A stretch of 64,000 nt of DNA from Tribonema minus (Eukaryota; Sar; Xanthophyceae; Tribonematales; Tribonemataceae): contig JAFCMP010000212.1 in assembly GCA_017506865.1 (NCBI GenBank), forward strand, positions 124,001-188,000, written 5' to 3'. Shown here piece by piece: positions 150 through 59,539 of this stretch. The notes under the pieces are model-generated. The model did no database searches. It was not told the DNA's origin and was given only the letters and a program-made list of their open reading frames with translations. Each line of letters starts with the position of its first letter. Positions within the stretch are counted from its first letter, which is position 1. Both the position numbers and the translations under genes were made by a program.

Positions 150-1755
150 TCATGAAAATCTGTGTCGGAGCAGGGGTCCTCCTACAGCAAACATGCCACA
201 CTGCTCACCGAAAATGTCAAGTGCCTTGGCCCGGTTCTCAGGATCGCTGAACTTGATGGGATGCGCAAACATGCACTGGGATGGGTCCACAGATCCTTGA
301 CCGCACAACTCAAGAAACTTATATGTCGTCTCATCGAAAAGCATGCCGAATATTGTTGGCACTGCAACTTCCAAAAAGACGTTGCTACTTGTGAAAATCA
401 TGGACAGTGTCGCATAATCAGCCATGGCGGAGGCTGGCAGATAGTACCCGTCGCCACCATATCCCGCGTGAAAGGCAGACGTTGTTGTGTCTGCCAGGGC
501 TGAGCCGTCCTTGATCAGCAGCGGCCAGTGCTCAGCCACCTCTTTCACAGCTGCTATAGCATCTGTCAGAGTCCTTGTCCACCACCACCAAGCGGACACG
601 TCCGCCTCTGTGAAAGCGCCGATGTGGTCCACGACATTGGCGGACAGCGGGAAGTTGCCCCATGGCACAGACGCAAAGTCTGCATTGACATTGAGCTTGA
701 AGAAGTTGATCATGTAATCATCGTTCGCCAATAGATACCCGTCGTATCCGGGAAACCGAAAGTAAGCCAACGCAGGAGCCAGGGCAGCCAAGTACCCATC
801 GAAAACCCACGGGTTGAAAAGCACACCTTCTACTGCTGAAAATGGCCCAGTCAGAACGACGTCAAAGCCCGCTGGCAAACACAGCGGCAGCATCTCGGTC
901 GTTATGAAATCTGCCACAGCCTGTGAGAATCTGTGGTGGAAGTGGATGATCATCAGCACCCTGTTGCCGTTTTCTACGAGTGGCTTGCCGTTGTAAATCA
1001 TAACGTCGCGGTGGATGACGCCAGAAAAGGTGAAGTTACGGTCCTCTTCTGATGCCCTTACCGCAAAAATATCATTTTGATTATCAAGTGGCCTTGAGTG
1101 CAGAGAGCACAAGCACTGCAGCCGCTTGCTGTTGGCATAGCAGGGGACACTGCCTGCGTCAGTGCTATCAGCTGCTATGGGAGTCAAGGACCAGGCGACA
1201 CAGGCGGCGTTGCTGCCGCAGACCTGCAGGCATTGCTGAGCCCGGACTGCGACCATGTTGCTGCCGCCAGCAGCGGGCAGCAGACTGGCAGTGCTCCTTT
1301 CCCCGCCAGCAAGGGAAAAGCCGGCTAGCATGGGGGTTGCCCGGCTCGGTACACTGAACTCGGATGTACTATGACCGAAGGGCACTGTCACCTGCCTCGT
1401 TGGATGTGCCACATGCTGTGATGATATGCAAGGGAATGATAGCCCCGCTGCTGTCAGCTCTTGCAACCAAAGCTGCACGAGCTCTACATCAAAGAGCTCT
1501 ATGTATCCGCGCATGTACATGTCCGCCCACAGGGCCTCCATCATGCCTTGCATGGTAGTGTGATGGCTAGACCAGCTGCTGAGGAGGTTCACAAGGGCTT
1601 CTGCTTTGTGATAGAGGTCGGCTTCGGCGAGTAGATCCCCCATGTAGTCGTGCACGTTACGCACTTGCTCGACGTACTGGCCCATGAACCCCACTCGCAG
1701 GTCTGCTGCCCAGAAGAGAGGCTGTGAGAAGTAGGACCTCCAGATGTCAGCAACC
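150..1755 (-). CDS. STELLO/DUF288-type protein, exon 3 with C-terminal half
   Basis: Acceptor CATATAG opens the exon; the split Arg codon is completed and reads VADIWRSYFSQPLFW, which is the expected continuation of ...VHGR in this family. Next come VRNVHDYMGDLLAEADLY, then a less conserved linker with a cysteine cluster (C-x3-C-x5-C...C-x8-C-x-C, about residues 524-565 of the protein). The second STELLO half follows, with HFHHRFSQA, FDVVLTGPF, FRFPGYDGYLLANDDYMINF and HAGYGGDGYYLP. The frame ends at a stop at 150-152. A possible donor (TTCG before GTGAGC, exon end 209) lies just before the stop, so the last 19 codons could be replaced by a further exon left of this window. Total length of about 883 aa is somewhat above plant STELLO (about 770 aa), mostly because of the linker. 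Confidence 0.82.
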
Positions 1756-4544
1756 CTATATGCACGGTCAGCATGAAAGGAGACGGCACATCAGGCAACG
1801 GTTTAAAGCATTGCTTTTCGTAGGCCTCCGTTGTCAAAGTCAATAAAAGCAAAGAGGAGTGAACCATCAAAGCGATGGCTAGCGGTGGATGATAATAGAA
1901 AAGCTGACCAGGAGATCAGGTACGTTCAGTAAGCAGTGCAAGGGAGTTTTGTTTGTGAGTATTGACAAGGCTGAGACAGGTATTGTTGATGAGATGGCCT
2001 TCAACTTTTAATTGACAGTACTATTGTAGTATTTCAGTAGACGTGACGAGCTAATCTGGAGATAGCTCTGCATATTCCATGTCCAGTGGCCACATTCCTA
2101 CTGGTAGCACTAGCTTTAAGTGACTGGCACTGGCAAGCTCATATTGAACAAAAGATGGGGCTGGTGTCCAAATCATCAGCTTGCCCTCCAGGCCCGTAAT
2201 GAGGGGAGAACTGGCCCGTAGTGAGAAGATAAGTATTGGCGCAAAGCCCCTGTTTATGAAGGTACCACACATTAACTCAATTATTGATTTGGAGTTGAAG
2301 ATTGCAAAATCATTCGACTGAACACGGACAGTTTGTTTCAGTTCGATCTGTAGGTACAACAACAACTGTTATACTGAAAGTTGAGCACTGGGATGCTACC
2401 GCAACTGATTATTCCTTTAAGTTCAAGTTTAACATGAACTGTCAGTCTCAGTCACTTACAAGTGTGAGAGTTGCACCATCATCCGTAGACCAAGCTGAGG
2501 CGAACTGTTGATGTTCAGTCAAACGATTTTGCGACCTTCAACTAAGCTGTAGTGCCTTGAAGTATCCGAAGATTACGCCAAACAATCATCTCCTGTTTTA
2601 AGGGAAGGATTACCTGCCTTTTGAAAAGGCTTCCCACACTGCTGTAGAATCTGCTGAGTGACCTATGTCTTCTCGTTACGTTCACAGTGATGTAACAACG
2701 TGTATGAAGCTCCACATTCTGCTTCTGACCTCTGTCAGCTAAGAGCACTTGGCCGCCTGGTACACAAGCGCCATATCATTCATGACCAGACTGACAACAT
2801 TTACAGTCACCAAGCAAACTTTAAACCTGATGTCAACGAGATGACAAATCGGATAACAAGGTACTATATAGCAAACACTAACAGGATGTTGATGTCATGC
2901 AACAGTTCCGACACATTTTGGTTGCAGTTTTGTACATAAAATTGGTCATGCAGGGCTTGAAGAAGGGCCTATGTAATAACACTTACTTGTCCCAACTTAC
3001 CCATTGCAACTTTTGGCCACATGAAACAGCTTTTTAGCTGTGTTAATTGCTTTGCTGCATTCAGCATGTGAATTCGACTGGCATGGCTGTCCATCAAGGT
3101 GCACCTGTGTCATCGGTTACTGATAGGTCATGCACACTGTAAAGATGCGACAAGGGTTCAATCACAAGAGATACCTGCCTATTTACGTTTTGGACAGGCA
3201 GGTTGTATGTCCCTCATTACGGGCGTCCCACCTTGTCAAACCTTGCTGCCAACGTTATGAAATCCACAAGCTACATGATGGAGCTTTGCACTAAGTCTAA
3301 AGCACTCTGCTTGAAACAATGCCGCAGCTGCTGCAGCAATTCATCTTTTTTAATGGCTATAAACCACCACCAAAAGCAGCAGCAGAAGAAGAAATTGACA
3401 GCAGCGCACCAGGAGCGCAGTCGCTCCAGCACTAGGCTGTAAGCAATTACACTTTGTATTCTGTCACTGTTGACAATGGGCAAACATTTGAATGCATGAA
3501 GCAGGTCAGGTCAAACTCTGGAGTACATCTCACGGCAGCGTGCCCAGAGGCTCTGTGGCAAGCATCACATTCAACCACTTAGCTGTACACCAAGCTTCTG
3601 TGGCATGATACGCATAGTTCATAGTTGATTGGCCGCTTCATGTGTGAGGAAAACATGGACAGATGGAATGGTATTGCTGCCATGTACAACCACGGAACAC
3701 GTCAGTAAAGCAAGAATACATCAGTACAGCACATGTTTCCACACATGTAACCATGCACGCACGCATGATGGTGCCATCACTGTAGTTTTAATGATCATGA
3801 GCTTAGGATTACAACTGCATGGTGTTTTATTGGTTGATTGCTAGTCTTAGAAGGGGGCTGCCGTCGCTCACCCGCGCCCGGAGGCCTCCACTAGGCTAAG
3901 CGTACTATGTAGTAGATCAGGCCAGGATTGCGCACCTGCTGCAGACAACTTGAAGCCAGTTTGCTGTTATGATACCCATGAGGTTTGCTAACGCAGTTGA
4001 AGTATACTGATTGTGTAGGTCTTCATTGGCTGCATATGTGGGTTGAAGTTACTTTCCAATTGATGCAAAAGTTCGTTTGCAACTTCTCATTCAAGCATCA
4101 GAGTTACTTCAAGCACGTGCGGCTGTAGCAGAAGTTCAAACTTTCAGCTAAAAAAGAAGTAGCATACAAACTTCCGATTCAAACAGAAAAATTCTCACCC
4201 AACATGTGAACCAGGCGCAGTCCGTCAAAATGAATTCCGCGTGATGGTACAACCTTCATCTCGACGCTGAGGGCAGACCTGTTTCAGTCTGCCTGCACCA
4301 GCTTGGTCTGATCTGCAACAATGAGCCCTCTGGGAGCTCACTTTCATGATGCAACAACAAAATTTGCTTGAAACTTTGCACAACTACCTCAGCTGACGTA
4401 CAAAGGTACATGCACTGGATCACGCAATCACGAAGTCAAAAGCTACTAGTAGCAGGGTAACCACATGTAAGTCATTGATATAGATAACACACCAAGGCAG
4501 CATGCACATGCTGAACGCATAATATAATATATTCCGAGCCTCAC
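1756..4544 (-). other. Intron 2 of the STELLO-like gene
   Basis: GT-AG intron of 2.8 kb. It contains the worn foldback element at 2220-2593. The rest is AT-richer unique sequence; 4010-4190 carries several GAAGTT/AACTTC words. No exon-like segment with good borders was found in it. Confidence 0.7.
2220..2593. repeat. Degraded foldback/MITE, related to the 19246-19654 element
   Basis: The left part (2255-2345) and right part (2495-2593) are diverged inverted copies of each other. Both match the arms of the much better preserved element at 19246-19654: the shared words include GAGTTGAAGATTGCAAAATC on the left and GTTCAGTCAAACGATTTTGC on the right, and the right end finishes in CATCTCCTG as in the young copy. 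This is an older insertion of the same family, lying inside an intron. Confidence 0.65.
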
Positions 4545-16674: not shown

Positions 16675-17865
16675 CTAGGCGCCCTCCTCCAGCAGCTCAA
16701 GCATGACCTCCTCATCAAGCACATCGGCAGCCTTCTTGTCGTTGCCCTTGATGAACACCAGCTTCTCGCCCTTTGCAAGAGCGAGGTTGCTGCGGCACTT
16801 GGTGTACACCGTGCCCCACAGCGACCAGTTCCGTTCAGTGGCGCACGCGGTAGCGTGAAACGATAGAAGTCTCACAGCCACCTTGGACACAAGAGGGAAG
16901 TGCTGGCGGCCTACAGTCTGCCACCAACCGCGGCGCATGGTTCCATTGGCTAGCTGCACCTTACCAGACGCCAGCGTGGTGCGCTCCGTCAGCGTTGGCA
17001 GCGACTCCCACATGACCTCTGGCAAGGGCGCCAGCTGCATGCGAACAAGCTCCGCGGTGATAGCCGCCGCATGCTCCGCTCCGCCCAGCTTCAGGATGCA
17101 GGCCTTGGCAGCCGCGAGCTCCATGGGCTCCAGCGATCCGAAGGGCAAGAACCACTTGCCGTCCGTCTGCACCGCGTAGCAGGGGTCAACAACGTAGGCG
17201 GCCACCCACTCCTTGGCCCGATGCAACTCGTACCGCCGCTCAAACAGCGGCAGCGCGGCTGCGCGGCCCTCGTTGTCGGGATGGGCGTCAAAGTTGGCGG
17301 CGTGCTTCAGCAGCTGCTTCCAAATGGGAAACAACTGGCTGAGCAGCGCCTTATCAGCCTCCAGCTGGTGGATGGCGTCGCTCACCGGCTGCACCAGCGT
17401 CTTCAGCGCACTGGCCTCGCTGAAGAAGCGGTATGCCGGCGTGCGGCCGCGCGCGGGCACCATGGTGGCAGCACCGGCAAACTCGTCCGCGTGCGTTGTG
17501 GTGCCAGAGATGGTGGGCCAGTCGCGCGCGGACGCCATGCGCCTGATGGCCTCCTCAGACGCCAACAGGTCGCAGATGATGAAGTGCAGGATAGCAAAAC
17601 GCGTGGGGCAGTGCGTGCGGACGCCCTTGACGCTGCCGTACATCTCCTTCTGCTGCTCGCGCAGCGCGCGCTTGACCGGCTCGCAGCCGTTGATGGTGTT
17701 GGACATCATGAGGCCGGTGGCGTACGCCTTCTTGGACCAGGGCAGCCGCGTAGTCTTGTCGCCGTGAAGGTCCTTGATGAGCAGGGCCAAAGCATGAGCC
17801 TGGCATCCGAGCAGAATCCACTGAGGGTGCTGCGCCTTCATCATGTCCATGGCTTTTCTGTTAGC
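16675..17865 (-). CDS. hAT transposase, exon 2 (catalytic core and dimerisation domain)
   Basis: Acceptor CCCGCAG, then GCTAACAGAAAAGCC, gives ANRKA in phase 0 and completes the family phrase ...DNTKANRKA. Residues 296-310 read LLGCQAHALALLIKD, the C-x2-H motif that follows the second catalytic Asp region in hAT proteins. The C-terminus carries the hAT dimerisation domain with ATERNWSLWG (Glu at about 623, the third acidic residue) and KLVFIKGN. The stop at 16675 follows an acidic tail. No frameshift or internal stop was seen over 396 codons. Confidence 0.92.
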   Translation of the reverse strand, partial: ANRKAMDMMKAQHPQWILLGCQAHALALLIKDLHGDKTTRLPWSKKAYATGLMMSNTINGCEPVKRALREQQKEMYGSVKGVRTHCPTRFAILHFIICDLLASEEAIRRMASARDWPTISGTTTHADEFAGAATMVPARGRTPAYRFFSEASALKTLVQPVSDAIHQLEADKALLSQLFPIWKQLLKHAANFDAHPDNEGRAAALPLFERRYELHRAKEWVAAYVVDPCYAVQTDGKWFLPFGSLEPMELAAAKACILKLGGAEHAAAITAELVRMQLAPLPEVMWESLPTLTERTTLASGKVQLANGTMRRGWWQTVGRQHFPLVSKVAVRLLSFHATACATERNWSLWGTVYTKCRSNLALAKGEKLVFIKGNDKKAADVLDEEVMLELLEEGA

Positions 17866-18066
17866 CTGCGGGTGCAGCGCGACACATGCACATTGCACGA
17901 AGATGTTGAGTCAAGCACTAAACTTGATCATGATGCGCGCATCAAGACACCATTAGCACACTTCATTTGTCACACTAGGTATGGTCGCATACACATGACA
18001 AAAAAGAAGCATAGAGAAACTTTGTTACATCAAGAACGGTTGCATAACGTGATATAAGAAGCTTAC
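17866..18066 (-). other. Intron of the hAT transposase gene
   Basis: A 201-bp GT-AG intron (GTAAGC...CCGCAG). Removing it joins the two frames at a conserved point of the protein, so the splice sites are well supported. Confidence 0.88.
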
Positions 18067-20645: not shown

Positions 20646-20647
20646 TA

Positions 20648-21440
20648 CCGTAGGAAACGGGTTATAATACCCCCTCCTTATATAAGACCCCCCCTTTGTA
20701 TAAGACCCCCCCGTCTTGTTGTTTTGTGCTTCTGGTTGCTAAGACAGGGGCCATTTTGTATAAGACCCCCCCCCTTCTTGTAAGCTGATGCAGATGACCA
20801 GAGACCAGACAAAATGGAGTGTTCTGTGTTGTCCCCCCCCCCCTTGAACGTTTTTGACCAGATAAAATGGAGTGTTCTGTGTTGTTCTACCCCCTCCTTT
20901 AGGGCTCTTGAAGGCTTTGAACCTTTTTGTCGGAAAGCCTAAGTCAAGTTTGAACTAAATTGTTGAAGTTCATGGCGCTGGCGGCTGCGATGGCGGCCTG
21001 TGCCGATACTTGCATAAGCTCCCAACGCAACGAGCTCTGAGCAACGCGCAGCTATGGCGTAGGTTGTGCTGTGCGCTTGCTGCGCACAGCGTATTATTGG
21101 CTCAAAGGCTAAGGAGCAACCCTGAATCTGAGCATGCGTTCGGTGAGCTGAATGCCGCGATTGTGCACAAAGCAGACATACGTGAAAACCAGAAGGCTTT
21201 TGTTCCCACCATCACGATCGCTTGATTGACCAGCAGATGAGGCTATCGCTGCCTGCTCCAGAGCGCAAACTGAGTAGATAAATTTGCCGAGGGGGGGTCT
21301 TGTCAACACGAGGCTTGGAAGGATGCTAAGACAGGGAAAACTCTGTATAAGAGGGGCTACTTTGTATAATACCCCCCCGTCTTAGCAACAAGGGCCTAAA
21401 ACTGCAAGACGGGGGGGTATTATAATCCGTTTCCTACGAA
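20648..21440. mobile_element. TA-target G-tract MITE, copy 3 (793 bp)
   Basis: The left end reads CCGTAGGAAACGGGTTATAA and the right end, on the other strand, TTCGTAGGAAACGGATTATA, each running into a poly-C tract. TA flanks both sides (20646-20647, 21441-21442). The subterminal TATAAGACCCCCCC word repeats several times. The interior has a duplicated AAAATGGAGTGTTCTGTGTT unit. No transposase. Confidence 0.68.
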
Positions 21441-21459
21441 TACATGCCTACCTATACCT

Positions 21460-21829
21460 CTATATAGCTCTGTTGCGCTGAGCGATGCCTGCAACTTGGC
21501 TGAGCATTGCTGCCTGCAGTTCTGCTACTAGTATCTTTGAGCGTTGCTGCAATGGCGAACCTACCTGCACCTCTGCTCCGCTGAGCGATGCCTGCAGAAT
21601 TGGCTGAGCGTTGCTGCCACTCCGTTGAGCATTGCTGCTAAGTATACCCCTCCCTGCAGTTCTAATCCGCTGAGCGATGCCTGCAATTTGACTGAACGTT
21701 GCTGCCTGCAGCTCTGCTGTGAGCTGAGCACCGCTGCTTCTGGTATACCTACCTGCTCTTATACTATTCAGCTGAGCAGTGTCTACAACATGGCTAAGCG
21801 TTGCTGCGTGCAGCTCGCCTCTGACATAC
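21460..21829. repeat. Tandem array of exon-end-like sequence
   Basis: Diverged units built on (minus strand) GCAACGCTCAGC...GCAGGCATCGCTCAGC with TAGAACTGCAG, roughly 100 bp each. They resemble the last 30 bases and donor of the adjacent exon (21830-21947), which reads GCAACGCTCAGCGGAGCGGA. The 135-aa minus frame across it is a by-product of the repeats. Confidence 0.6.
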
Positions 21830-21947
21830 CTGTAGCTCCGCTCCGCTGAGCGTTGCTCCAATGGCATCCTTGCGCGCGTCGTGAAACTGCCGCCAGATGT
21901 CGCTCACCGGCTCCTTCTTCTCCAGCAGCGCTAGGTTTGTGATCTCG
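21830..21947 (-). pseudogene. Exon-like segment, possibly ATP11/ATPAF1-like, gene uncertain
   Basis: Acceptor AAATTTTCAG, donor CTACAG before GTATGT. It reads EITNLALLEKKEPVSDIW then RQFHDARKDAIGATLSGAE with no stop. The IWRQFHDARKDAIGATL phrase weakly recalls the IW..yH..k.daIga motif of ATP11-type F1-ATPase assembly factors, but the evidence is only one short exon. It could instead belong to the decayed cyclase gene upstream on the same strand. No further downstream exon was found; a repeat array follows directly. Confidence 0.4.
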
Positions 21948-22061
21948 CTGAAAATTTAGCAACCTGCTTCATACATCAGGCACCGTCATTTCACAGCCGT
22001 GAGCTTCAGGTATCACAGTTGAGAGGAGCTCGATGAAATGTATGCAGTCAGGTTAAGGTCA

Positions 22062-22110
22062 GGTTTAGGGTTATCCCTGACCCTACCCTAACCCTAACCT
22101 GATATAGTTA
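22062..22110. repeat. Interstitial telomere-like tract
   Basis: Mixed GGTTTAGGGTT and CCCTACCCTAACCCTAACCT units in both orientations around 22062-22100, i.e. TTAGGG-type repeats facing each other, leading into the hairpin at 22100-22140. Confidence 0.7.
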
Positions 22111-22140
22111 GGTTGTATTGAATACAACCTAACTATATCA
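22100..22140. repeat. 41-bp hairpin: 20-bp perfect arms, 1-nt loop
   Basis: TGATATAGTTAGGTTGTATT is followed by a single G and then its exact reverse complement. The arms contain TTAGGT/ACCTAA, close to the telomere-like repeat next to it. Confidence 0.93.
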
Positions 22141-23303
22141 TAACCAACCCCCCCCCTGACCTAAATGAGGGTTGCTTCGCAAGAGAAAAGAAGAGGTGAG
22201 ACAGCCGCTGCAATGGTGCGATTCGCAGTGCGCCATCATCAAAGAAAGGCGTAACTGCCGCACGAGCATGCGCACGCAGTAACTTCAACAGAGTGAAATT
22301 GCGAAGCAGGACTCGTCACAGGGCTTCCTGGATGACGAGCGGAGGTGGACAGAGAAGCAAGGACACTGCTACAACGCGACGTTTTACTTGAACCTACTTC
22401 AGCTTCAACTTCAAGCACTGCATCTGACGTCACATGCAAAGTCTGAGACATCTATCGTGTCAGAGGGCGAACACCTGCTCCTCAGCTGTCAGAGTGCAAA
22501 TGCAAGAGCACGCACCGCGCAGGCATGGTACCATCAACAATTGTTGAGCTGCGTCACGGACGCTGGATGTGCTGCTCTAGAGGGTATACCCAATAGTCAT
22601 GGAGGAAGTGAAACACGAGTAGCAAAACGCCGAACTGCGCACACACCCCAAAACGCTTTGCGGGCCCGCATTGCAGCCTCAAGAGTGCTTAGCCAAGCTT
22701 GTTAGGATCCTACATTGAGTGAAGTAGCAAATACATATGTGGCGTTCACACTTTGCACGGCGATTGATCGGGCCTTGGGGTGTAGGCTGAGGTTTATAGT
22801 ACCTAACCCTAACCCTAACCCTAATCCTGACAGGCACAGTCGAAGTTTCAGCTTGAAGTATAGCTAGGTGAAGTCAATACTTCGGAGTACGTGTATTGTG
22901 TCGCGCAGGCCATGAGTGAACGCATCCAGAGCACTGAGGTAACCAATTGCATTCGAGATCCTGCTGAAAGCTCCTGGGGGTAACCTTTATGAAACAGGCA
23001 GGATCGTGTCTGAGCGTGTCAACCCTAACCAAGCCCTAGCTAAGCTGTGTGCTCACTGAATCAGGGTGCGAGCAAGGCCCAGCCAATACATGAGTGCATG
23101 AACAACTTGTATCCACTACATATATTCATGATGCTTCTACAGCATGCGAACGCCGGTCATTGAGCTATACCGATAACCCAACCTCAAGACCTAAGAATAG
23201 GGTTCACAACAACCCTGCCTGCAAGATTGCATAATGAGAGCGTAGAGCTAGCCTGCAATGACCTGTGCCTCTGATGCTAACACCCTAACCCAACTGCACA
23301 ACC
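22141..23303. other. Gene-free spacer with telomere-like islands
   Basis: Carries a clean CTAACCCTAACCCTAACCC run at 22803-22823 and scattered CCCTAA words (23021-23035, 23280-23307). The frames here (for example plus 22388-22705) show no family resemblance. Likely intron or intergenic sequence of the decayed gene complex. Confidence 0.45.
22803..22823. repeat. Interstitial (CCCTAA)n run
   Basis: Three and a half uninterrupted CCCTAA units, the TTAGGG telomere type, with a near unit on the right. Confidence 0.85.
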
Positions 23304-23316
23304 CTAATTCATGTAC

Positions 23317-23609
23317 CTGTTGATGATGCGAGCTGCCTCCTGCGCCTCCACCAGCGCGTGCCGCAGCAAACACTCTTGCAGTTGCCTGCCTCCCTTGTCA
23401 CCGTGGTACACCGTGCGTCTCACTGGACGGGGGCAACGCGGCGTGCAGTTGACGTCAGAGCCGGACCTGACGAAGCACATAAGGTTGAAGTGAAGGTCCG
23501 CAAAGTCTGTGCTACGATGAATTTTTGCTGCAATCATGCCGTTCGTAGACGACATAAGCCGAATAGTGAGAATACTGGAGGAAACCCTCGCTGCTGAGGA
23601 TGGGGTCAA
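23317..23609 (-). pseudogene. Exon-like segment of unknown or decayed gene
   Basis: The minus frame is open from 23609 and ends in GGRQLQECLLRHALVEAQEA then ARIINR, before a donor (AACAG before GTACAT). The amphipathic helix-like end and donor look exonic, but the start of the exon is not clear and no family was recognised. It lies between the cyclase exon at 24.7 kb and the exon at 21.9 kb on the same strand. Confidence 0.3.
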
Positions 23610-24309
23610 GGGCTAGAGACGAGAAACCGTAACCCGCACCTGTATCATCAGCGCACTTGTGTTGACATGTTGTTGGGTGAAGGACGCCTCGCAGGACACC
23701 TGGTATCGCGCCCTACAGGGCTGATGAACTCGGTAGCTATAAATCAACCGTACTTTCAAGTTCATCAACTTCTGCAGCGCAACATAATCAGCTCAAGTGC
23801 AAAATTGAAGTGTATCAATTGACGCGGGTCATATGTTTACACTTCGCGTACTGCAAGTACCTCGTCAGAGTCGGCAAGCAAGTGTTCAGCCACCCCAACC
23901 ACTGCTACTGAACACGAACATATCATTCATGGCAACTTTGCCAGTCCTGGTGTCATGAGCTCATGTCATCCATTGCTGCATTTGTATGGCGGCTTCATTG
24001 ATGCATCACTTGTAAAGCAGCACTGCAAACTGGCGTGACTGACACACATTAGCAGATGTATGAATATGAATACTTTGAGTACATTCCTACACTGGGTGCG
24101 CAAAATTCATCAAGAACGCAAGCACGATCGCAGCCGCCGGTGGCTGCCGGTAATGCAAGGCACAGCTTGCGCCATAAAGGCCCTGTGTAAACATCACACC
24201 ATGGCTTCAAGTTCAAGTTGTGTCCTACATGTACCTCGAAGTACACACGTACTCAACAAACAACTGATGCTCATTATACTTGAAGCACGCGCAGCAAAGT
24301 TCACAATTG

Positions 24310-24709
24310 AAGTACACCTCATCTTCAGCTCTGAGGCAGAACTCGCTCTTTTGCCGCAGAGCGACATCTGGAAGTACATGTGCACTCGACGAAAGTATTC
24401 GGTGCTGATACCTGAAGCACTGTGCCCACAGGTCCACGGTTGAAGTGCACCCCACCTGAGCGCTGAGGCAGAACTCGCGCTGGCCGCTGAGCCGCACCTC
24501 AAAGTTCATGTGCACTTCACAAAGTAGGTACGCTGATACTTGAAGCACTGCGCAGCAAAAGTTGATACTTGAAGTACACCTCATCCTGAGCGCTGAGGCA
24601 GAACTCGTTCTTTCCGCAGAGCTACGCCTCGAAGCACATGTGCACGCCACGAAGTGTGGATACTCATATTGAAGTGCGCAACCAAGTTCACAATTGAAGT
24701 ACGCCTCAC
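24310..24709. repeat. Tandem array of cyclase exon 3'-end plus donor (about 128-bp unit)
   Basis: TGAGGCAGAAC recurs at 24332, 24464, 24594 and 24718, spaced 132, 130 and 124 bp. On the minus strand each unit reads GAGTTCTGCCTCAGCGCTCAG-like sequence, i.e. the last codons (FCLSAQ) of the cyclase exon at 24710-24832 and its splice border. Each unit also keeps a diverged copy of the exon middle. The minus 141-aa frame here is a by-product. Confidence 0.78.
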
Positions 24710-24832
24710 CTGAGCGCTGAGGCAGAACACGCTCTTGCCGCTGAGCTCCTGCGCCACGGCGAGCTGCTCAATGACGGGGCCGCACACGAACATCTTCCAC
24801 TCCTTCTTGTTGTTGAACCCGATGCCGCCGAC
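24710..24832 (-). pseudogene. Class III nucleotide cyclase-like exon
   Basis: Acceptor GGTGTTAG, donor AGCGCTCAG before GTGAGG, 41 codons. It reads VGGIGFNNKKEWKMFVCGPV then IEQLAVAQELSGKSVFCLSA. The spaced pattern GG..FN...W..FV.G..IEQ...A is typical of the C-terminal part of class III cyclase domains of the soluble (sAC/ADCY10-like) type. It continues the fragment at 26083-26257 on the same strand. Flanked on both sides by arrays made of its own borders. Confidence 0.6.
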
Positions 24833-25195
24833 CTAACACCAGGGGGGGGGGAGGCGCGTCACACATGAAGTTAGCCATGAAGTTAGACATGAAGTTACTC
24901 ACACGAACGTCTCCCACGGTCCAACTTGTTGTTGAACACCATGCCGCCGACCTGACGCCAGGGGGGGGGGGCGTCACACATGAAGTTAGCCATGAAGTTA
25001 GCCATGAAGTTAGACATGAAGTTTCTCACACAAACGTCTTTCACTCCTTGTTGTTGAACACGATGCCGCTGACCTGGCAGGGGTGTCACACTTGTTAGTC
25101 ACGAGGTTTGTCATGTGTGCTGTGTTTCATCTTGAGTGTCTCCCACTCCGTCCTGCTGTTGAACACGATGCCGCCGACCTGACGCCAGGCAGGGG
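24780..25195. repeat. Tandem array of cyclase exon 5'-border (about 117-bp unit)
   Basis: GATGCCG(C)(C/T)GACCT recurs at about 24821, 24943, 25062 and 25171 (spacing 122, 119, 109). On the minus strand every unit has an acceptor AG followed by GT(C)(G/A)GCGGCAT.G.GTTCAACA, the start of the cyclase exon, and most continue to a GTGTGAGT donor-like site. Spacers hold CATGAAGTTAG micro-repeats and poly-G runs. Confidence 0.78.
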
Positions 25196-25384
25196 CAGGG
25201 GCGTCACACACGCAAGTTAGTCATGGGAGCTGTGTATTTGTATCAATGCCTGCCCTGAAAACTGGGGGGATGTGCAGTGGGGGGGGGAGGGCCGTCGAGG
25301 CCGACCGCAGGCTGGAGCTGACAAGCTCAGCTCGTCGAGCAGTATACCGCCGCACTGGCACGCCGCGAGCGCCACCAGCACGAG

Positions 25385-25715
25385 TCCGTCACCGGCGCCG
25401 CGCCGAGCATCGCCTGCAGCGGCGGCGGCGGGTTTCGAACTGCACTATTCGGTGTTGCGAGCGGAGGAACTGGAGGATTCGTTCGGCATGCGATCGAGGG
25501 TTAAGGAATGTAGGGTATGTAGGGGCTGGCAGCGCATGACACCATGCGCTCCTGTCCGTCACCGGCGCTGCGCCGAGCATCTCCTGTAGCGGTGGCAGCA
25601 GCGGTGGGATTCAGACTGTAGTTTTGGGCGTCGTGCGTGGAGGAACTGGCGGGTTCGCTGGGCACGAGATGAGGGTGAGGGTATGTAGGTATGTAGGGGC
25701 TGGCAGCGCCTGACA
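25385..25715. repeat. About 170-bp tandem duplication
   Basis: GTCCGTCACCGGCGC.GCGCCGAGCAT occurs at about 25385 and 25554, and GGTATGTAGGGGCTGGCAGC at about 25513 and 25690, giving two diverged copies. The first copy has an open plus frame containing LHYSVLRAEELEDSFG, with no recognised family. Confidence 0.7.
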
Positions 25716-25830
25716 TGGAGTGCATGCCAAGCAGCGCATGTCGCGATGCGGCCTGCACTGGCTATCGCACAGGAGTCTGGGTTAGCGTACTGCTAGGGTT
25801 TAGGTAGGGCAAGAGCGGTAGCTCACTTAC

Positions 25831-25864
25831 CGCCAGGGCGACGAGCTCGGCGTTGTACACAAGT
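25831..25864 (-). pseudogene. Partial cyclase exon-end copy (third)
   Basis: The minus strand reads LVYNAELVALA before a GTAAGT donor, a diverged partial copy of the exon end LMVVYDAE seen at 26083-26257 and 25894-25955. Confidence 0.45.
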
Positions 25865-25893
25865 AGGGTCAAGGCTAGGGTTAGGGTACTCAC

Positions 25894-25955
25894 GCGCCAC
25901 CAAGCGCTGCCCTGGGCGTCGTACACGACCATGAGCGCGTCGCCCGCGAAGCACT
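25894..25955 (-). pseudogene. Partial cyclase exon-end copy (second)
   Basis: The minus strand reads KCFAGDALMVVYDAQGSAWW before a GTGAGT donor. K..AGDALM is the metal-binding Asp motif of class III cyclases. It repeats the end of the 26083-26257 segment without that copy's frameshift. Confidence 0.55.
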
Positions 25956-26082
25956 TTTTATTTTCTAATGCACGTCACGGCCATGTCAGGGTCAGGGTCA
26001 GGACCAAAGACATTTGGCTCGCCTGCCAGGTTTAAGCTCAAAACGTTAGGGTTAGCGTTAAGAAATACGGCGGCAGCTCACC

Positions 26083-26257
26083 TGGCGCCGCACGATGCCG
26101 CTCGGCATCGTACACGACCATGAGCGCATCGCCCCCTAAGCACTTGACGTCATGCCCGTGCCGCAGATGTACGACAGCAGCTCGTTGAAGTAGCCGTTGA
26201 TGATCGTCCAGAACTTCTCGATGCCCGCGGGCCCGTTGGACGCGAAGCCATGAAGCC
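26083..26257 (-). pseudogene. Class III nucleotide cyclase-like exon, frameshifted
   Basis: The minus strand reads LHGFASNGPAGIEKFWTIIN then GYFNELLSYICGTG, matching the helical region before the second metal-binding Asp of sAC-type class III cyclases. The frame then breaks (a stop follows MTSSA), and the continuation GDALMVVYDAERHRAAPG is found in another frame before a GTGAGC donor. A short deletion around 26140-26150 explains this. The first catalytic Asp region should lie further upstream but was not found. Active cyclases make cAMP from ATP; this copy is very probably dead. Confidence 0.62.
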
Positions 26258-26298
26258 GCTCACGACTGCGCGGCAACGGCAGCGGCGGCAGCGCTCAG

Positions 26299-55187: not shown

Positions 55188-55606
55188 GCTCCGCTCATCC
55201 GCGACCCTGAAACCCAAAAAGCAACCGAGCACTTATGCTATAGTGAAGTCAGTCAAGACACTCAAACTGTTGAAGTTTGACAATGGTAGATTCTTGGCCT
55301 CACTTAGACGCACCAGAAGAGCTGTTGGTTGTTGAAGTTGAGACGGGTGGAGCCGTGCTATTGCACGCTGAGCAGTGATATGACAGTTGAAGTTGGCATG
55401 AAGTTGAAGTATGAATATCACCGTTGAAGTACAATATCACATCAGGAACAACATCAACTTCAACAAGTGAGTAGTCAGCAGATGCCCCTGACATAGGGCT
55501 ACAGCATGCCATTACCCAACTTAAACACCTGTTCTGCCCTGGAGACTTTACTATAGCATAAGTGCTCGGTTGCTTTTTGAGTTTCAGGGTCGCGGATGAG
55601 CGGAGC
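55188..55606. mobile_element. 419-bp TIR element inserted in the RT-RLE frame
   Basis: Arms of 63 bp (55188-55250 and 55544-55606) are inverted copies with two mismatches, starting GCTCCGCTCATCCGCGACCC. GGATCC flanks both sides (55182-55187 and 55607-55612). Removing the element and one GGATCC (425 bp) joins the RT frame to the endonuclease frame without a shift (...TEPAGS / SAPHTHG...), which strongly supports an insertion. The centre is rich in GTTGAAGTT words and encodes nothing. Confidence 0.85.
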
Positions 55607-58600
55607 GGATCCTGCTGGCTCAGTGGTCACTGTCTCCGTGACGGCAGTTGCGGCGTAGATCGCTTGCACCGCAGTGGGGAGCGTCGACGCTGCGGCCGTC
55701 GTATCTGCTGCCCACCGTAGCAACGATGCTGGGAGCTGCTCGGCCACAGCTGTGCGTGATTTTTCGCCGCCATCAGCTGTCAGCGCTCGCGTAGAGCGTC
55801 GCACGGCCTCGATGATTGGCGGCAGTCCCTGGTCCTCGCGTATTGCGCATGAGTGCTGCGCGAACCAGGTGACTGCGCCGTGTTCGTCAGTGCCGAGCCT
55901 CAGGGCCCCTGCTGCCACAGTGGCATGAATTATTGCCGGCCTCAGTGTTGTGCATGCCTGGGCCGTGTATGCGGCTGGTGCCAGTAGCCCCAAAAGCGGC
56001 ATGCCCAGACCGCCTCGTCGCTCCGGCAACCGTGACGCCCGCAGTGGCACTGCGATGTCCGTGAGTTCTGGCGGGCCCAAGCGCGGCAATACCAGCACGC
56101 TGCCACTGCTGGCTTCCTCATTGTCACCAGCAGTGCAGGCGGCCAGCAGGTGTGACTTCATGGCTGCCGCGGTAGAGCAGCCGTGCAGATGCAGCATGCG
56201 TTCGAGCGTCCATGCACAGAACCCGTCAAACGCGTGCAACCATGTCTCACTCAAAGCCGTGTCAACGACCCGAGCTAAGAAGCCCATGCGCTTCGTCAGT
56301 GACCTGCGTAGAATGAACTGTGCTGCCTGTAGGTGATGCCGCGCCATTCCAGCTAGCTGCCACGACAATCGCCATGTCCCTGCGTCGACCAGATGCTTGC
56401 TCATGGCAGCGTGCACATAGGCTGGGTGCCCTACCGGTACCCCGACCGACGTAAAGCCCTGACTGGATTCTGGCATGGTGGTGTCCACAAACGGTATGTC
56501 AAGGGCGCGCAGGCGTGCTCTGGCCGCTTCATCAAACACTGTGCCGCGCATGGCGATGGCCAGCGACTTGTCTGGTCGAACGCGTAGGCCCCCTGCCGCA
56601 AGCCGGCGGATCACCTCTGCCACCCCAGCGGCCGCTGCATCGTCGAAGTAGGCAGCTTGCAGCACGTTGAGGTCATCCAGGAAAGCGCAGTGCGGGGCTG
56701 GCGGTTCCGCTGTGCTGTGGCCGTAGGCCGGCATACTGCCGGGCGTCGCATTCACTCCATCAGGGTAGAAGAGTAGGAAGGCCGCTGCCACTGCAAAGTA
56801 CAGCGGCCCTAGAGGGTCCCCTTGCTGGCACCCTAGGTGGGAGCAGATAATGCGGGCTTCACCGTTCACCTCCACCCGCATCTCTGGGGCAGTGTCACCA
56901 CAGTATACGGACTCAAAGTGCGGGAGCAGCTCCGGACAGAAGAGCATAAGCCCCCGCACAATGGCGGCGCGATCCACACTGTTAAATGCGTTCTCACAGT
57001 CCAGTTGGATAGTGGTGCCATACAGCTCGTGCCACACGCGCGCGCGCGCTGCCACATGCTCGACGCCAGACCGGTATCCTACGCCAAACTGCGACATGGA
57101 GGCCAGCAGCCCCGATATCTTGCCCTTGACACTCCGTGCCGCTGTGGACCCGAGGAGTCTGCGCCAGACACTGGAGCAGGCGATCGGACGCCGCTTCTGT
57201 CCTATGCCTGAGAGGGCCGCGGCGCGGAGAAGCCGTTGCGATTGCTCCGGCAGCAGTTCGGGCTCAACAAGCAGCGTCGTGAACACCTTGGCCAGGTGAT
57301 GGGCGAATGCCGGTTCCATCACATCTGATTCTGAATCACCAGCTAGTCCTGGCGAGGCACTGCTCACGGGGCGGGTGGCTGCTTTCACTGGTGCACCAGG
57401 CCCAGCGGCCATCAAGAGGTGTTCATAGCGTAGGCCGTCCAGCCCTCCTGCCTTCCCCGCCCCTGCTGCGGACAAGGTCGACAGTATGTCTGCCGCCTCC
57501 ACCTCGAGGCGCCGTCCGGCTGCGCTGGCAGCATCCTCAGGCCTATCGCTGTGATCATGTGCCTGACCCGATTCGAAGACAGGACTGCCGCTGCCAGCTG
57601 GCCCGGTGGTCGTTGCCACCCCTGCGCTGTGTAAGCAGTGCCGCCGGGCGTCGCGTACCAGGCCGCGCACTTGCTCCATTGGCGTATCGACTACCCCCGG
57701 CCGGGTGCCAGTTTCAGGGTGCTTTGCTGCCAGCACCTGTGCCGTGACCTCGTCTGCTGGGGCGCATGCTTCACGCGCCTCTAGTCGTGCGGCAGCCAAG
57801 CCTACCCCCCGTCGCTTGCCTGAGAGGGCAGCGCATGCTGTTTGCTGCCTGGAGTCAGCCTCCGTCCAGTCGGCATCGAAGTTCGTTTGTGCTGACGCCA
57901 TGGCTGCGTTGTTTGGTTTGGGGGCCCGCAGCGCCGCTGCTGCTGACAGCGTCTTCCTCAGTAGCTCCGCGAAGTCGCCAGACAGCAACGCTGCCAGCCG
58001 GGCCGCAGGCGGCATACCGGTTCCCTCCGGTTGCCTACCAAAGGCCATCGCTGCTAGCAGGTGCAGCAGCCTGTAGCCGCGCTGCACTAGAGTCTGAGAA
58101 ACCTGATGAGCAAACGCCCCGGCACCATGGTGGAGGCGCACCCGTGCCGCCTCACGTGCACTGTCTGTGGCGTCCGCCAGTAGTCGTGTGGCGTGCTCCA
58201 CTAGCCGTGCCCACTGGGTGCACTGCAGCTGAGTGCGGAAGGGGTTGGCAGTCGTGGTGAACCGCAGCAGCAGTAGATCCGCCTCATTGGTCTGGTCAAG
58301 TGCGTGGACGACCGAGGGCGTCGAGAGGTCCCAAGCCAGGGATGCTCGTGCCTGGGGCTTTGAGGGCCTGCCACTGGTGGTGGTGGTCGGGGGGGGCGGT
58401 GACGCGGCATCGTCCGACGGGTCCACGTCCATGTCCGCCCATCCCACGGCCGTCCCGTGGGGGGGGCTGCTGTCCTGCAGCCTCAGGCTGTCAGACTGAG
58501 TGCGGCTGCCGGCGCTGCTAGGCGGTGCCGCAGCAGCTGCCGTTCGGCGCCGGCGTTGCGCGCCGGTTGCCGTAGCCGCCGGGCGTTTCTTGCTAGACTT

Positions 58601-58627
58601 TGAGTTGGCAGCGCCACTAGCCGGCAC
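55607..58627 (-). pseudogene. Reverse transcriptase of an RLE-type non-LTR retrotransposon (interrupted)
   Basis: 1007 codons to the insertion point. The N-terminus is Ala/Pro-rich with basic clusters (KSSKKRP, QRRRR). The RT domain runs from about residue 390 (GGLDGLRYEHLL), through RRPIACSSVWRRLLGS (about 480), motif A QLDCENAFNSVDR (about 540), motif B CQQGDPLGPLYF (about 600), motif C CAFLDDLNVL (about 648; FLDD in place of the usual YADD/FADD) and motif D LRVRPDKSLAIA. A post-RT RLPERRGGLGM phrase follows. All catalytic Asp are kept. The computed frame runs on into the inserted element and stops at 55499, but the true frame continues at 55181. Apart from the insertion no stop or frameshift was seen. 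Confidence 0.85.
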
Positions 58628-59539
58628 CGCCGGTAGTTTTGGAGGTGTCGCTGCGGCAGCCCCCGCCGCCGCGGCCGCGCCGTCGCTACCCGCACCCCCG
58701 CCCTCGGACTGGCCCGGGGGTACTGCCGGGCGTGCGCGCGTGGGGGTGCTTCCATTCCGTCGACACGTGTGGCATGGCGAGGTCAGCGCGCATACGTACA
58801 GTATCAGACGAAATATACATTTATTTATTTATAAATAAGCTGTTCGGCTAGCCGGTCTTGATGAGTCGACGCTTGAATACTTGATGCACACATGGCGCTG
58901 ATCAGGAAGACGCCTGACCTACATCTGAAGGAAGTGGCGTGACGGTCGCTGACAAATGGCCATACGGCTTGCAGAGCCTATACGGCTTGCAGCGCGTGGC
59001 CTCCATTTCAATACTTTTCACGCCCTGTGTTGAAACACGGGGCCTCTTGGCCCACAGGAGGCCCACTGGCCAGCCAGACGCCCCGCCACCAGATCCCGTG
59101 CAACTTGAAGAGTGATTCATTGTGCAAGTGCACTCATGCAAGGCAGGTGACGCTCCCACTTGTCACTGCTCAGCAACTCCTAACCATAGGGTACTCGCGA
59201 TGCTACCACAGTGGCACCCCTCCCCGGCTCCTAGCGAGTCGCGAAGAACTAGCGAGTTGCACAGGGGACGCTGAAACTCAGTAGGCTAGACATCGTGGCA
59301 AAAGCCAGAATGCGCCATGCTGTGGCTGCTGGCATGCAAGTGAGGAGATTGGCAACAGTTACTATAGGCCTGAAGCATGTCCAGAGCACCCACATCAGCT
59401 AGGTGTCACTACCAGGCTCTGCACTGCTGCTCCCAGGCATGACATTGTGCGGTGCAGGTGCGAGTAACGTGCCCACTGCTGCCGAAAGCCATCATGGCAG
59501 GCGTGAGTACTACCAGGCCCACCGTCGACAGTGCGCCGG
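58628..59539. other. Spacer right of the retrotransposon
   Basis: 58640-58760 is GC-rich and open in several frames and may be the 5' part of the retrotransposon. 58810-58840 is an AT-rich TTTATTTATTTATAAATAAG stretch, similar to 36293-36308. The remainder shows no gene. Confidence 0.45.

What the first reader, a model, noticed from the sequence alone, without database searches (positions are those of the whole stretch)
21460..26257. Exon borders of a cyclase-type gene have been multiplied into tandem arrays
Four separate places in one decayed minus-strand gene show the same thing. The acceptor and first codons of exon 24710-24832 are repeated four times upstream (24780-25195, about 117 bp). 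Its last codons and donor are repeated four times downstream (24310-24720, about 128 bp). The end of exon 26083-26257 is repeated three times with fresh donors (26083, 25894, 25831). The end of exon 21830-21947 runs into an array of its own last 30 bases. The units keep splice sites in register with the repeat. This looks like a process that copies DNA across exon-intron junctions, for example replication slippage or repair primed at splice borders. It could create alternative exons or gradually kill the gene.
Basis: partly seen in the sequence, partly recalled or inferred. Interest (0 to 1): 0.75.

Follow-up and report, generated by a model that had tools for sequence, protein, structure and literature searches.

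The report
Introns built from copied exon edges
In several genes of this unnamed eukaryote, introns contain ordered rows of decaying copies of the edges of their own neighbouring exons, most likely left by repeated small tandem duplications across the splice site; this gives a readable record of how introns get longer.

Summary
In the minus-strand gene (a broken ADCY10-like cyclase) the acceptor plus first codons of exon 24710-24832 lie three more times upstream, its last codons plus donor three more times downstream; the other places named hold too. Four gene copies, window included, carry the arrays. In the copy on contig C191 all six borders of the three catalytic exons are multiplied, and 91% and 71% of the middle of two introns is recognisable as copies of flanking borders. 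Unrelated genes show it: kinesin C141 and, from Pfam tables only, four of about ten CCT chaperonin genes. Kinesin C101 and cyclase C115 show none. The copies decay like dead DNA: intron parts diverged about twice as much as exon parts (ratio 2.07, CI 1.68-2.55). Best reading: frequent local tandem duplications (median spacing 135 bp); those straddling one border leave the true exon intact, survive, and lengthen introns from their ends. Whether borders are targeted is open: border excess P 1.4e-5 unblinded, 0.019 with exons masked, 0.12 point by point. A single border-crossing duplication is known in potato; ordered arrays in several genes look like a new variant.

The parts
26082..26265 (-). 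Exon E1 of an ADCY10-like cyclase (catalytic domain 1), no open frame in this copy
   Evidence: the paralogous C191 exon matches human ADCY10
25893..25942 (-). First copy of the end of E1, with donor GT after it
   Evidence: shift 189, exon part 38/50, E 3e-9
25827..25861 (-). Second, weak copy of the end of E1 with donor GT
   Evidence: shift 255, exon part 24/35, E 2.5e-5
25553..25657 (-). Copy of the acceptor border of E2 (border at 25583); extent approximate
   Evidence: shift 170, E 4e-19
25325..25413 (-). Remaining first part of exon E2; its second half appears to be missing in this copy
   Evidence: match to C51 ends at 25325
25139..25225 (-). E3 acceptor-border copy 3 (border at 25178), farthest from the exon; extent approximate
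   Evidence: shift 346; groups with the farthest copy of C548
25030..25123 (-). E3 acceptor-border copy 2 (border at 25076); extent approximate
   Evidence: shift 244; groups with copy 1 of C548
24902..25014 (-). E3 acceptor-border copy 1 (border at 24949), possibly a late addition; extent approximate
   Evidence: shift 117, 87%; 0.89 to the window's own border, 0.88 to those of C548 and C51, tree support 0.50
24710..24832 (-). Exon E3, true copy, frame open
   Evidence: 93-95% identical in C548, C51 and C191
24586..24623 (-). E3 donor-border copy 1; GT interrupted
   Evidence: shift 124, E 2e-20; dinucleotide lost
24456..24492 (-). E3 donor-border copy 2; GT intact; 0.94 to the same-position copies in C51 and C548
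   Evidence: shift 254
24326..24364 (-). E3 donor-border copy 3; GT lost; 0.93 to the same-position copy in C548
   Evidence: shift 384
21830..21947 (-). Further exon of the gene ending in a donor
   Evidence: sequence; stretch 92% identical in C548, 74% in C13
21444..21829 (-). Array of short copies of the end of exon 21830-21947

Best explanation
Introns in part of this genome have grown by repeated local tandem duplication (copy spacing median 135 bp, quartiles 121 and 174). A duplication that straddles one exon-intron border leaves the true exon whole and puts a 'half exon' (one splice site plus some tens of nucleotides of exon) into the intron beside it. Duplications inside an exon would damage the protein and be removed by selection; those at a border or within an intron are tolerated and add up. 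By geometry each new border duplication puts its copy right beside the true border, so introns lengthen from both ends, donor copies on the donor side and acceptor copies on the acceptor side. The copies then decay without constraint. Shown: the copies, their sides, decay at the rate expected of free copies, presence in unrelated genes. Inferred: duplication followed by selection as the cause; and that half exons are tolerated because the spliceosome needs both ends of an exon (exon definition, from general knowledge).
For: 59 copies at 25 borders in four cyclase copies and kinesin C141. Middle of introns covered by border copies: 91% and 71% in C191, 55% in the window, 34% and 65% in C51, 39, 6, 38 and 50% in C141; shuffled at most 4.6%. 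Intron parts diverged 2.07 times as much as exon parts (CI 1.68-2.55, 40 copies), the value expected if copies are free and the true exon is held. Splice dinucleotides intact in 47 of 59; exon dinucleotides 71% (P 0.19). Spacings show no preference for multiples of three (19, 22, 18). Identity to the true border falls with distance (P 0.006). Distal donor copies match by position between paralogs (0.93-0.95) better than within an array (mostly 0.6-0.8), so old copies persist unhomogenised. No tandem copy lying wholly inside an exon among 53 interior points in four kinesin genes. Unrelated genes: kinesins C141 and C446; CCT genes and two kinesins from tables.
Against: Border duplications exceed what random placement in present-day introns gives: 9 of 11 against 2.4 (P 1.4e-5), 5 of 8 against 1.9 with exons masked (P 0.019); the neutral reading needs shorter ancestral introns or some border preference. 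The fall with distance comes mainly from C191 (P 0.0065); C51, window and C548 alone give P 0.25, 0.21, 0.66, and intron parts show no fall. The C51 ratio alone is 1.57 with interval 0.95-2.6. Splice dinucleotides are kept more often than intron dinucleotides (54%, P 6e-5), and copies differ from exons more at third codon positions (128 of 779 against 74 of 763 and 86 of 775); I ascribe both to selection on the true exon and splice site, but weak constraint on copies is not excluded. No transcript data.
Confidence: 0.68

Rival explanations
1. A border-directed process (breaks, R-loops or replication slippage tied to splice borders or exon edges) copies junction DNA more often than other DNA, so that borders are growth zones of introns.
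For: 9 of 11 duplications in three kinesin genes straddle a border, 2.4 expected; still 5 of 8 against 1.9 with exons masked; C191 introns consist largely of border copies from both ends; two copies that may be late additions sit beside the exon.
Against: Point test not significant (8 of 36 against 26 of 201, P 0.12). Local duplications are also dense in stretches where I know no exon (22 of 57 points in L060, 19 of 60 in L053). Short ancestral introns would give the same pattern without targeting. Motifs or microhomology at unit ends were not tested.
Confidence: 0.2
2. The copies work as alternative splice sites or mini-exons and are kept for that.
For: Many copies keep AG or GT (19 of 23 and 28 of 36), more than intron dinucleotides do (P 6e-5); copies differ from the exon more at third codon positions; one acceptor copy is followed by a donor-like GTGAGT at 24902-24897.
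Against: Retention is not significantly above exon dinucleotides, the right yardstick because the true splice site is held (P 0.19); divergence ratio 2.07 means free decay; shifts not multiples of three; some copies have stops or lost splice sites.
Confidence: 0.06
3. Arrays are maintained by homogenisation (unequal exchange or conversion) like ordinary minisatellites, with the exon as a selected template.
For: Similar spacing within arrays; in C191 exon-proximal copies are most like the exon; C191 donor copy 1 is 0.92 to its own border.
Against: Distal E3 donor copies match their position partners in paralogs, not their neighbours, so there has been little homogenisation since those gene copies split.
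Confidence: 0.05

Closest known systems
Tandem duplication across an intron-exon boundary in the potato RdRp gene (PMC4974935; search listing and passages seen)
   Same: A tandem duplication crossing one intron-exon boundary.
   Different: One event in one gene that made a new intron; here many events, at both ends of exons, in several genes, forming ordered arrays of up to seven copies inside existing introns.
Intron gain by tandem duplication of an exonic AGGT (Rogers model; passages of the review PMC3443670; Drosophila cases in passages of PMC2891723; Gao and Lynch 2009 and Hellsten 2011 known only as cited there)
   Same: Small tandem duplication inside a gene, tolerated because splicing removes the extra DNA.
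   Different: There the duplicated piece is exonic and a new intron arises between the two AGGT; here the unit holds an existing splice site plus intron, and no new intron is needed.
Intronic minisatellites (general knowledge)
   Same: Tandem units of about 100-200 bp.
   Different: Units contain a splice site and part of an exon, are diverged by some 20-30%, mostly not homogenised, and ordered on either side by the exon they come from.
Introners (recalled, not searched)
   Same: Repeated sequences tied to introns.
   Different: No dispersed family found: the E3 unit was found only in this gene family.

Membership tests
ADCY10-type (soluble) adenylyl cyclase gene | Catalytic domain 1 sequence similar to human ADCY10 | tested here: met
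   C191 exons E1-E3 joined: the 4 PDB sequences matched at E <= 0.001 are all ADCY10, best E 6.7e-6
ADCY10-type (soluble) adenylyl cyclase gene | AAA-type ATPase part downstream | tested here: inconclusive
   AAA_16 at E 1.1e-6 but 29.6 bits, under the cut-off 32.6, in L061, about 12 kb downstream of E1 on the same strand of C191; same gene assumed, not shown
ADCY10-type (soluble) adenylyl cyclase gene | Pfam Guanylate_cyc match | tested here: not met
   PF00211 matches only C115 in this genome at E <= 0.001; 0 families for the joined C191 exons
Intron gain by exonic AGGT duplication | Duplicated piece wholly exonic, new intron between the two AGGT | tested here: not met
   Units hold intron and exon with an existing splice site
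Tandem duplication crossing an intron-exon boundary | Direct repeat, head to tail, straddling an existing splice site | tested here: met
   59 copies at 25 borders
Dispersed repeat or introner family | Copies at unrelated loci | tested here: not met
   E3 segment found on 4 contigs, all this gene family (counts are lower bounds)
Homogenised minisatellite | Units within an array more alike than between loci | tested here: not met
   E3 donor copies 2 and 3 match by position across paralogs; exceptions: C191 donor copy 1 and, weakly, window acceptor copy 1

The most novel reading that the evidence does not exclude
Exon-intron borders are the growth zones of introns in this organism: a duplication process acting mostly at junctions adds half-exon copies from both ends, so that an intron is an age-ordered record of its own borders and the splicing machinery must pick the outermost of many similar splice sites.
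Probability: 0.2. Interest if true: 0.8.

Novelty: new variant of a known kind. Interest (0 to 1): 0.6.

Why it matters
Long introns are usually put down to transposons (general knowledge). Here several genes show another route that can be read unit by unit, because each copy carries a coding tag from the exon edge it came from. It gives a natural test of how the spliceosome chooses between several similar donors or acceptors, and of whether half exons are invisible to it. It is also a trap for gene prediction: the copies look like exons.

Tried and rejected
Tried without gain: Rfam on the window (0 matches). Naming the organism through a STELLO-like protein: 12 homologues, no organism names; a green alga is only my guess. 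Pfam on read-through frames of L053 (both strands), L055 (minus) and L060 (plus), and on two plus frames of window 49-64 kb: nothing. rRNA, HSP90 and proteasome searches did not complete. Nine literature searches listed no report of arrays of exon-border copies in many genes; the nearest listed is the potato case.

Rejected: chance (shuffles); dispersed repeat; functional mini-exons; homogenised minisatellite for the E3 donor array. A first count of kept splice dinucleotides (50 of 56; positional profile) looked like selection but missed small insertions inside the dinucleotide and was biased by local alignment; the contiguous recount is 47 of 59 and replaces it. In some searches some kinesin C141 borders were one base off; corrected. 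The first placement test used C141 alone (5 of 8, P 0.0025); replace it. In those, nested pairs at C141 exon 5 were merged, two pairs in C522 that span or split exons were dropped, null fractions of the masked test were taken over from the unmasked alignments, that of the C522 duplication (0.25) was set by hand, and the masked pair at C141 exon 3 (20 nt from the border) was counted as straddling because the unmasked pair does. The eight extra C191 borders were chosen by eye because they had copies: examples, not a rate. Exon interiors: 6 of 53 points have a local match; 4 of the 6 are exon-to-exon likeness about 1 kb apart in C522 and 2 are border copies reaching far into the exon.
Full report
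What is there. The window lies in contig C212 of an unnamed 158-Mb genome in 554 contigs. The minus-strand gene at about 26.3-21.4 kb is a copy of an adenylyl cyclase gene of the ADCY10 type: the three catalytic exons of the paralog on contig C191, joined, match ADCY10 chains only among solved structures (4 sequences, best E 6.7e-6), although Pfam finds no family in them. The window copy is broken: E1 has no open frame and the second half of E2 appears to be missing.

Each unit holds one existing splice site, some exon and some intron.

Paralogs. A search of the genome with 901 bases of the region finds four places: C212 (window), C51, C548 and C191; other parts of the gene also match C166, C357, C13, C551 and C45. 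All four of the first carry the arrays. With one search setting (50 nt of exon plus 70 nt of intron as query), 59 copies are found at 25 borders in the four cyclase copies and kinesin C141. In C191 both borders of E1, E2 and E3 have copies (E1 2 and 3, E2 3 and 7, E3 1 and 4). Its two introns are 91% and 71% covered, outside their outer 100 bp, by recognisable copies of the flanking borders. Other introns tested: window 55%, C51 34% and 65%, C141 39%, 6%, 38% and 50%; shuffled sequence at most 4.6%. Eight further borders in the C191 region, chosen by eye, have 16 copies.

The four copies are not independent. E3 donor copy 2 is 0.94-0.95 identical among window, C51 and C548, copy 3 is 0.93 between window and C548, copy 1 is 0.89 between window and C51, while copies within one array mostly match at 0.6-0.8. 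Not every unit has a partner: C548 copy 1 matches nothing above 0.65. So several units are older than the gene copies and were not homogenised. Two copies may be late additions and both sit next to the exon: the first acceptor copy in the window (0.89 to the window's own border but 0.88 to those of C548 and C51; tree support 0.50) and the first donor copy in C191 (0.92 to its own border, 0.89 to that of C51; support 0.76). This is weak evidence.

Other genes. Four kinesin genes were fetched because they had four to six exon matches, before any repeat was looked for in them. C141 has copies at six of the eleven borders I looked at by eye and at seven of ten (the exon 5 donor weak, E 3e-4); C446 at one; C522 at two, weak (E 5e-5); C101 at none. 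At the raw ends of the Pfam matches, 8 of 36 have a local copy: 0 of 8, 1 of 8, 2 of 8 (one of them about 1 kb away) and 5 of 12 for C101, C446, C522 and C141. From match tables alone: in the CCT search (73 matches) seven matches are partial repeats that share, within 3 positions of the profile, the start or end of the neighbouring exon match, at five borders in four (C51, C135 twice, C516, C5) of about ten genes, C51 having three copies of one exon start; in the kinesin search (132 matches) two, on C246 and C511. These table cases were not confirmed at base level because the DNA could not be fetched. The other cyclase gene, C115, has no tandem pair in 9.9 kb.

What the copies are. If a copy is dead DNA and the true exon is held by selection, exon parts differ by one lineage's change and intron parts by two. 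Observed: 0.147 against 0.304 substitutions per site, ratio 2.07 (CI 1.68-2.55; 40 of the 59 copies, those with at least 20 nt of each part); by locus 2.13 (C191), 1.57 (C51), 2.00 (window), 2.38 (C548) and 2.66 (C141). Splice dinucleotides are intact in 47 of 59 copies (80%), exon dinucleotides in 71% (P 0.19), intron dinucleotides in 54% (P 6e-5). The exon rate is the fair yardstick because the true splice site, like the exon, does not change. Differences from the exon fall more on third codon positions (16.4% against 9.7% and 11.1%); true exons of paralogs differ in the same sense (9.7% against 4.3% and 6.4%), so change in the true exon can account for it, but weak constraint on copies is not excluded. 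Spacings are not multiples of three (19, 22, 18 of 59). So there is no clear sign of function. A bias remains: local alignments favour well-kept stretches, and the paralogous copies are not independent.

Growth from the ends. Identity of the exon part falls with distance from the true exon (16 arrays, 50 copies, P 0.006; nearest 87.7%, farthest 82.9%; intron parts show no fall, 75.9% and 77.3%). The signal comes from C191 (P 0.0065); C51, window and C548 alone are not significant. It is what geometry predicts: a duplication that includes the true border puts its copy next to it.

Is the border special? Among tandem pairs in three kinesin genes that leave exons intact, 9 of 11 straddle a border against 2.4 expected under uniform placement (P 1.4e-5; two further pairs in C522 were dropped because they span or split exons, and three nested pairs at C141 exon 5 were merged into one event). 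Border pairs are easier to detect because the exon side is conserved; with exons masked, 5 of 8 against 1.9 (P 0.019; one null fraction set by hand). Comparing points, 8 of 36 ends against 26 of 201 intron points (P 0.12), where intron points may lie in border arrays themselves. Exon interiors have 6 of 53, of which none is a tandem copy inside an exon. The random model uses present intron lengths; short ancestral introns would make border duplications almost the only tolerated kind. I therefore prefer duplication plus selection, and leave targeting open.

Known precedents. A single tandem duplication across an intron-exon boundary made a new intron in a potato gene (PMC4974935, listing and passages). 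Tandem duplication of exonic AGGT is a described route to new introns (PMC3443670, PMC2891723, passages). Nine searches of the held library listed nothing like arrays of border copies in many genes; most subscription papers are not in it.

Limits. Beyond the window, 298,436 letters of the genome could be read, many of them overlapping. Loci other than the kinesins were fetched because they match the cyclase gene or its Pfam family, so their repeat density is not typical: 13 of 362 points in the rest of the window have a local copy, 0 of 60 in C115, but 22 of 57 in L060. Exon borders were set by splice consensus and homology. On checking, the confidence of the best explanation was lowered from 0.70 to 0.68 and that of functional copies raised from 0.05 to 0.06, because the third-position excess and the comparison with intron dinucleotides had been left out.

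Noticed in passing
20647-21444: About 800-bp insertion with similar inverted ends (CGTAGGAAACGG...), absent at the matching place in paralog C548: probably a non-autonomous DNA transposon. No second copy in the other fetched loci searched.
   Followed up: partly
16678-17910 (-): ORF of 411 aa with a hAT dimerisation domain (Pfam E 2.5e-8).
   Followed up: partly
55502-58828 (-): Open frame of 1109 aa with a reverse transcriptase match (E 2.7e-7).
   Followed up: no
153-1790 (-): STELLO-like glycosyltransferase frame (Pfam E 8e-16); 12 homologues 29-49% identical, without organism names.
   Followed up: partly
22800-22830, 22080-22110, 25860-25890, and introns of L061: Short degenerate runs of TTAGGG/CCCTAA scattered through introns, like interstitial telomere repeats; not tested.
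   Followed up: no
L060, L061, L052, L053, L055: Local tandem copies at about a fifth to two fifths of sampled points in these loci (13 of 60 in L055 to 22 of 57 in L060), but 0 of 60 in L054 and 0 of 54 intron or flank points in L062: strong unevenness along the genome.
   Followed up: partly
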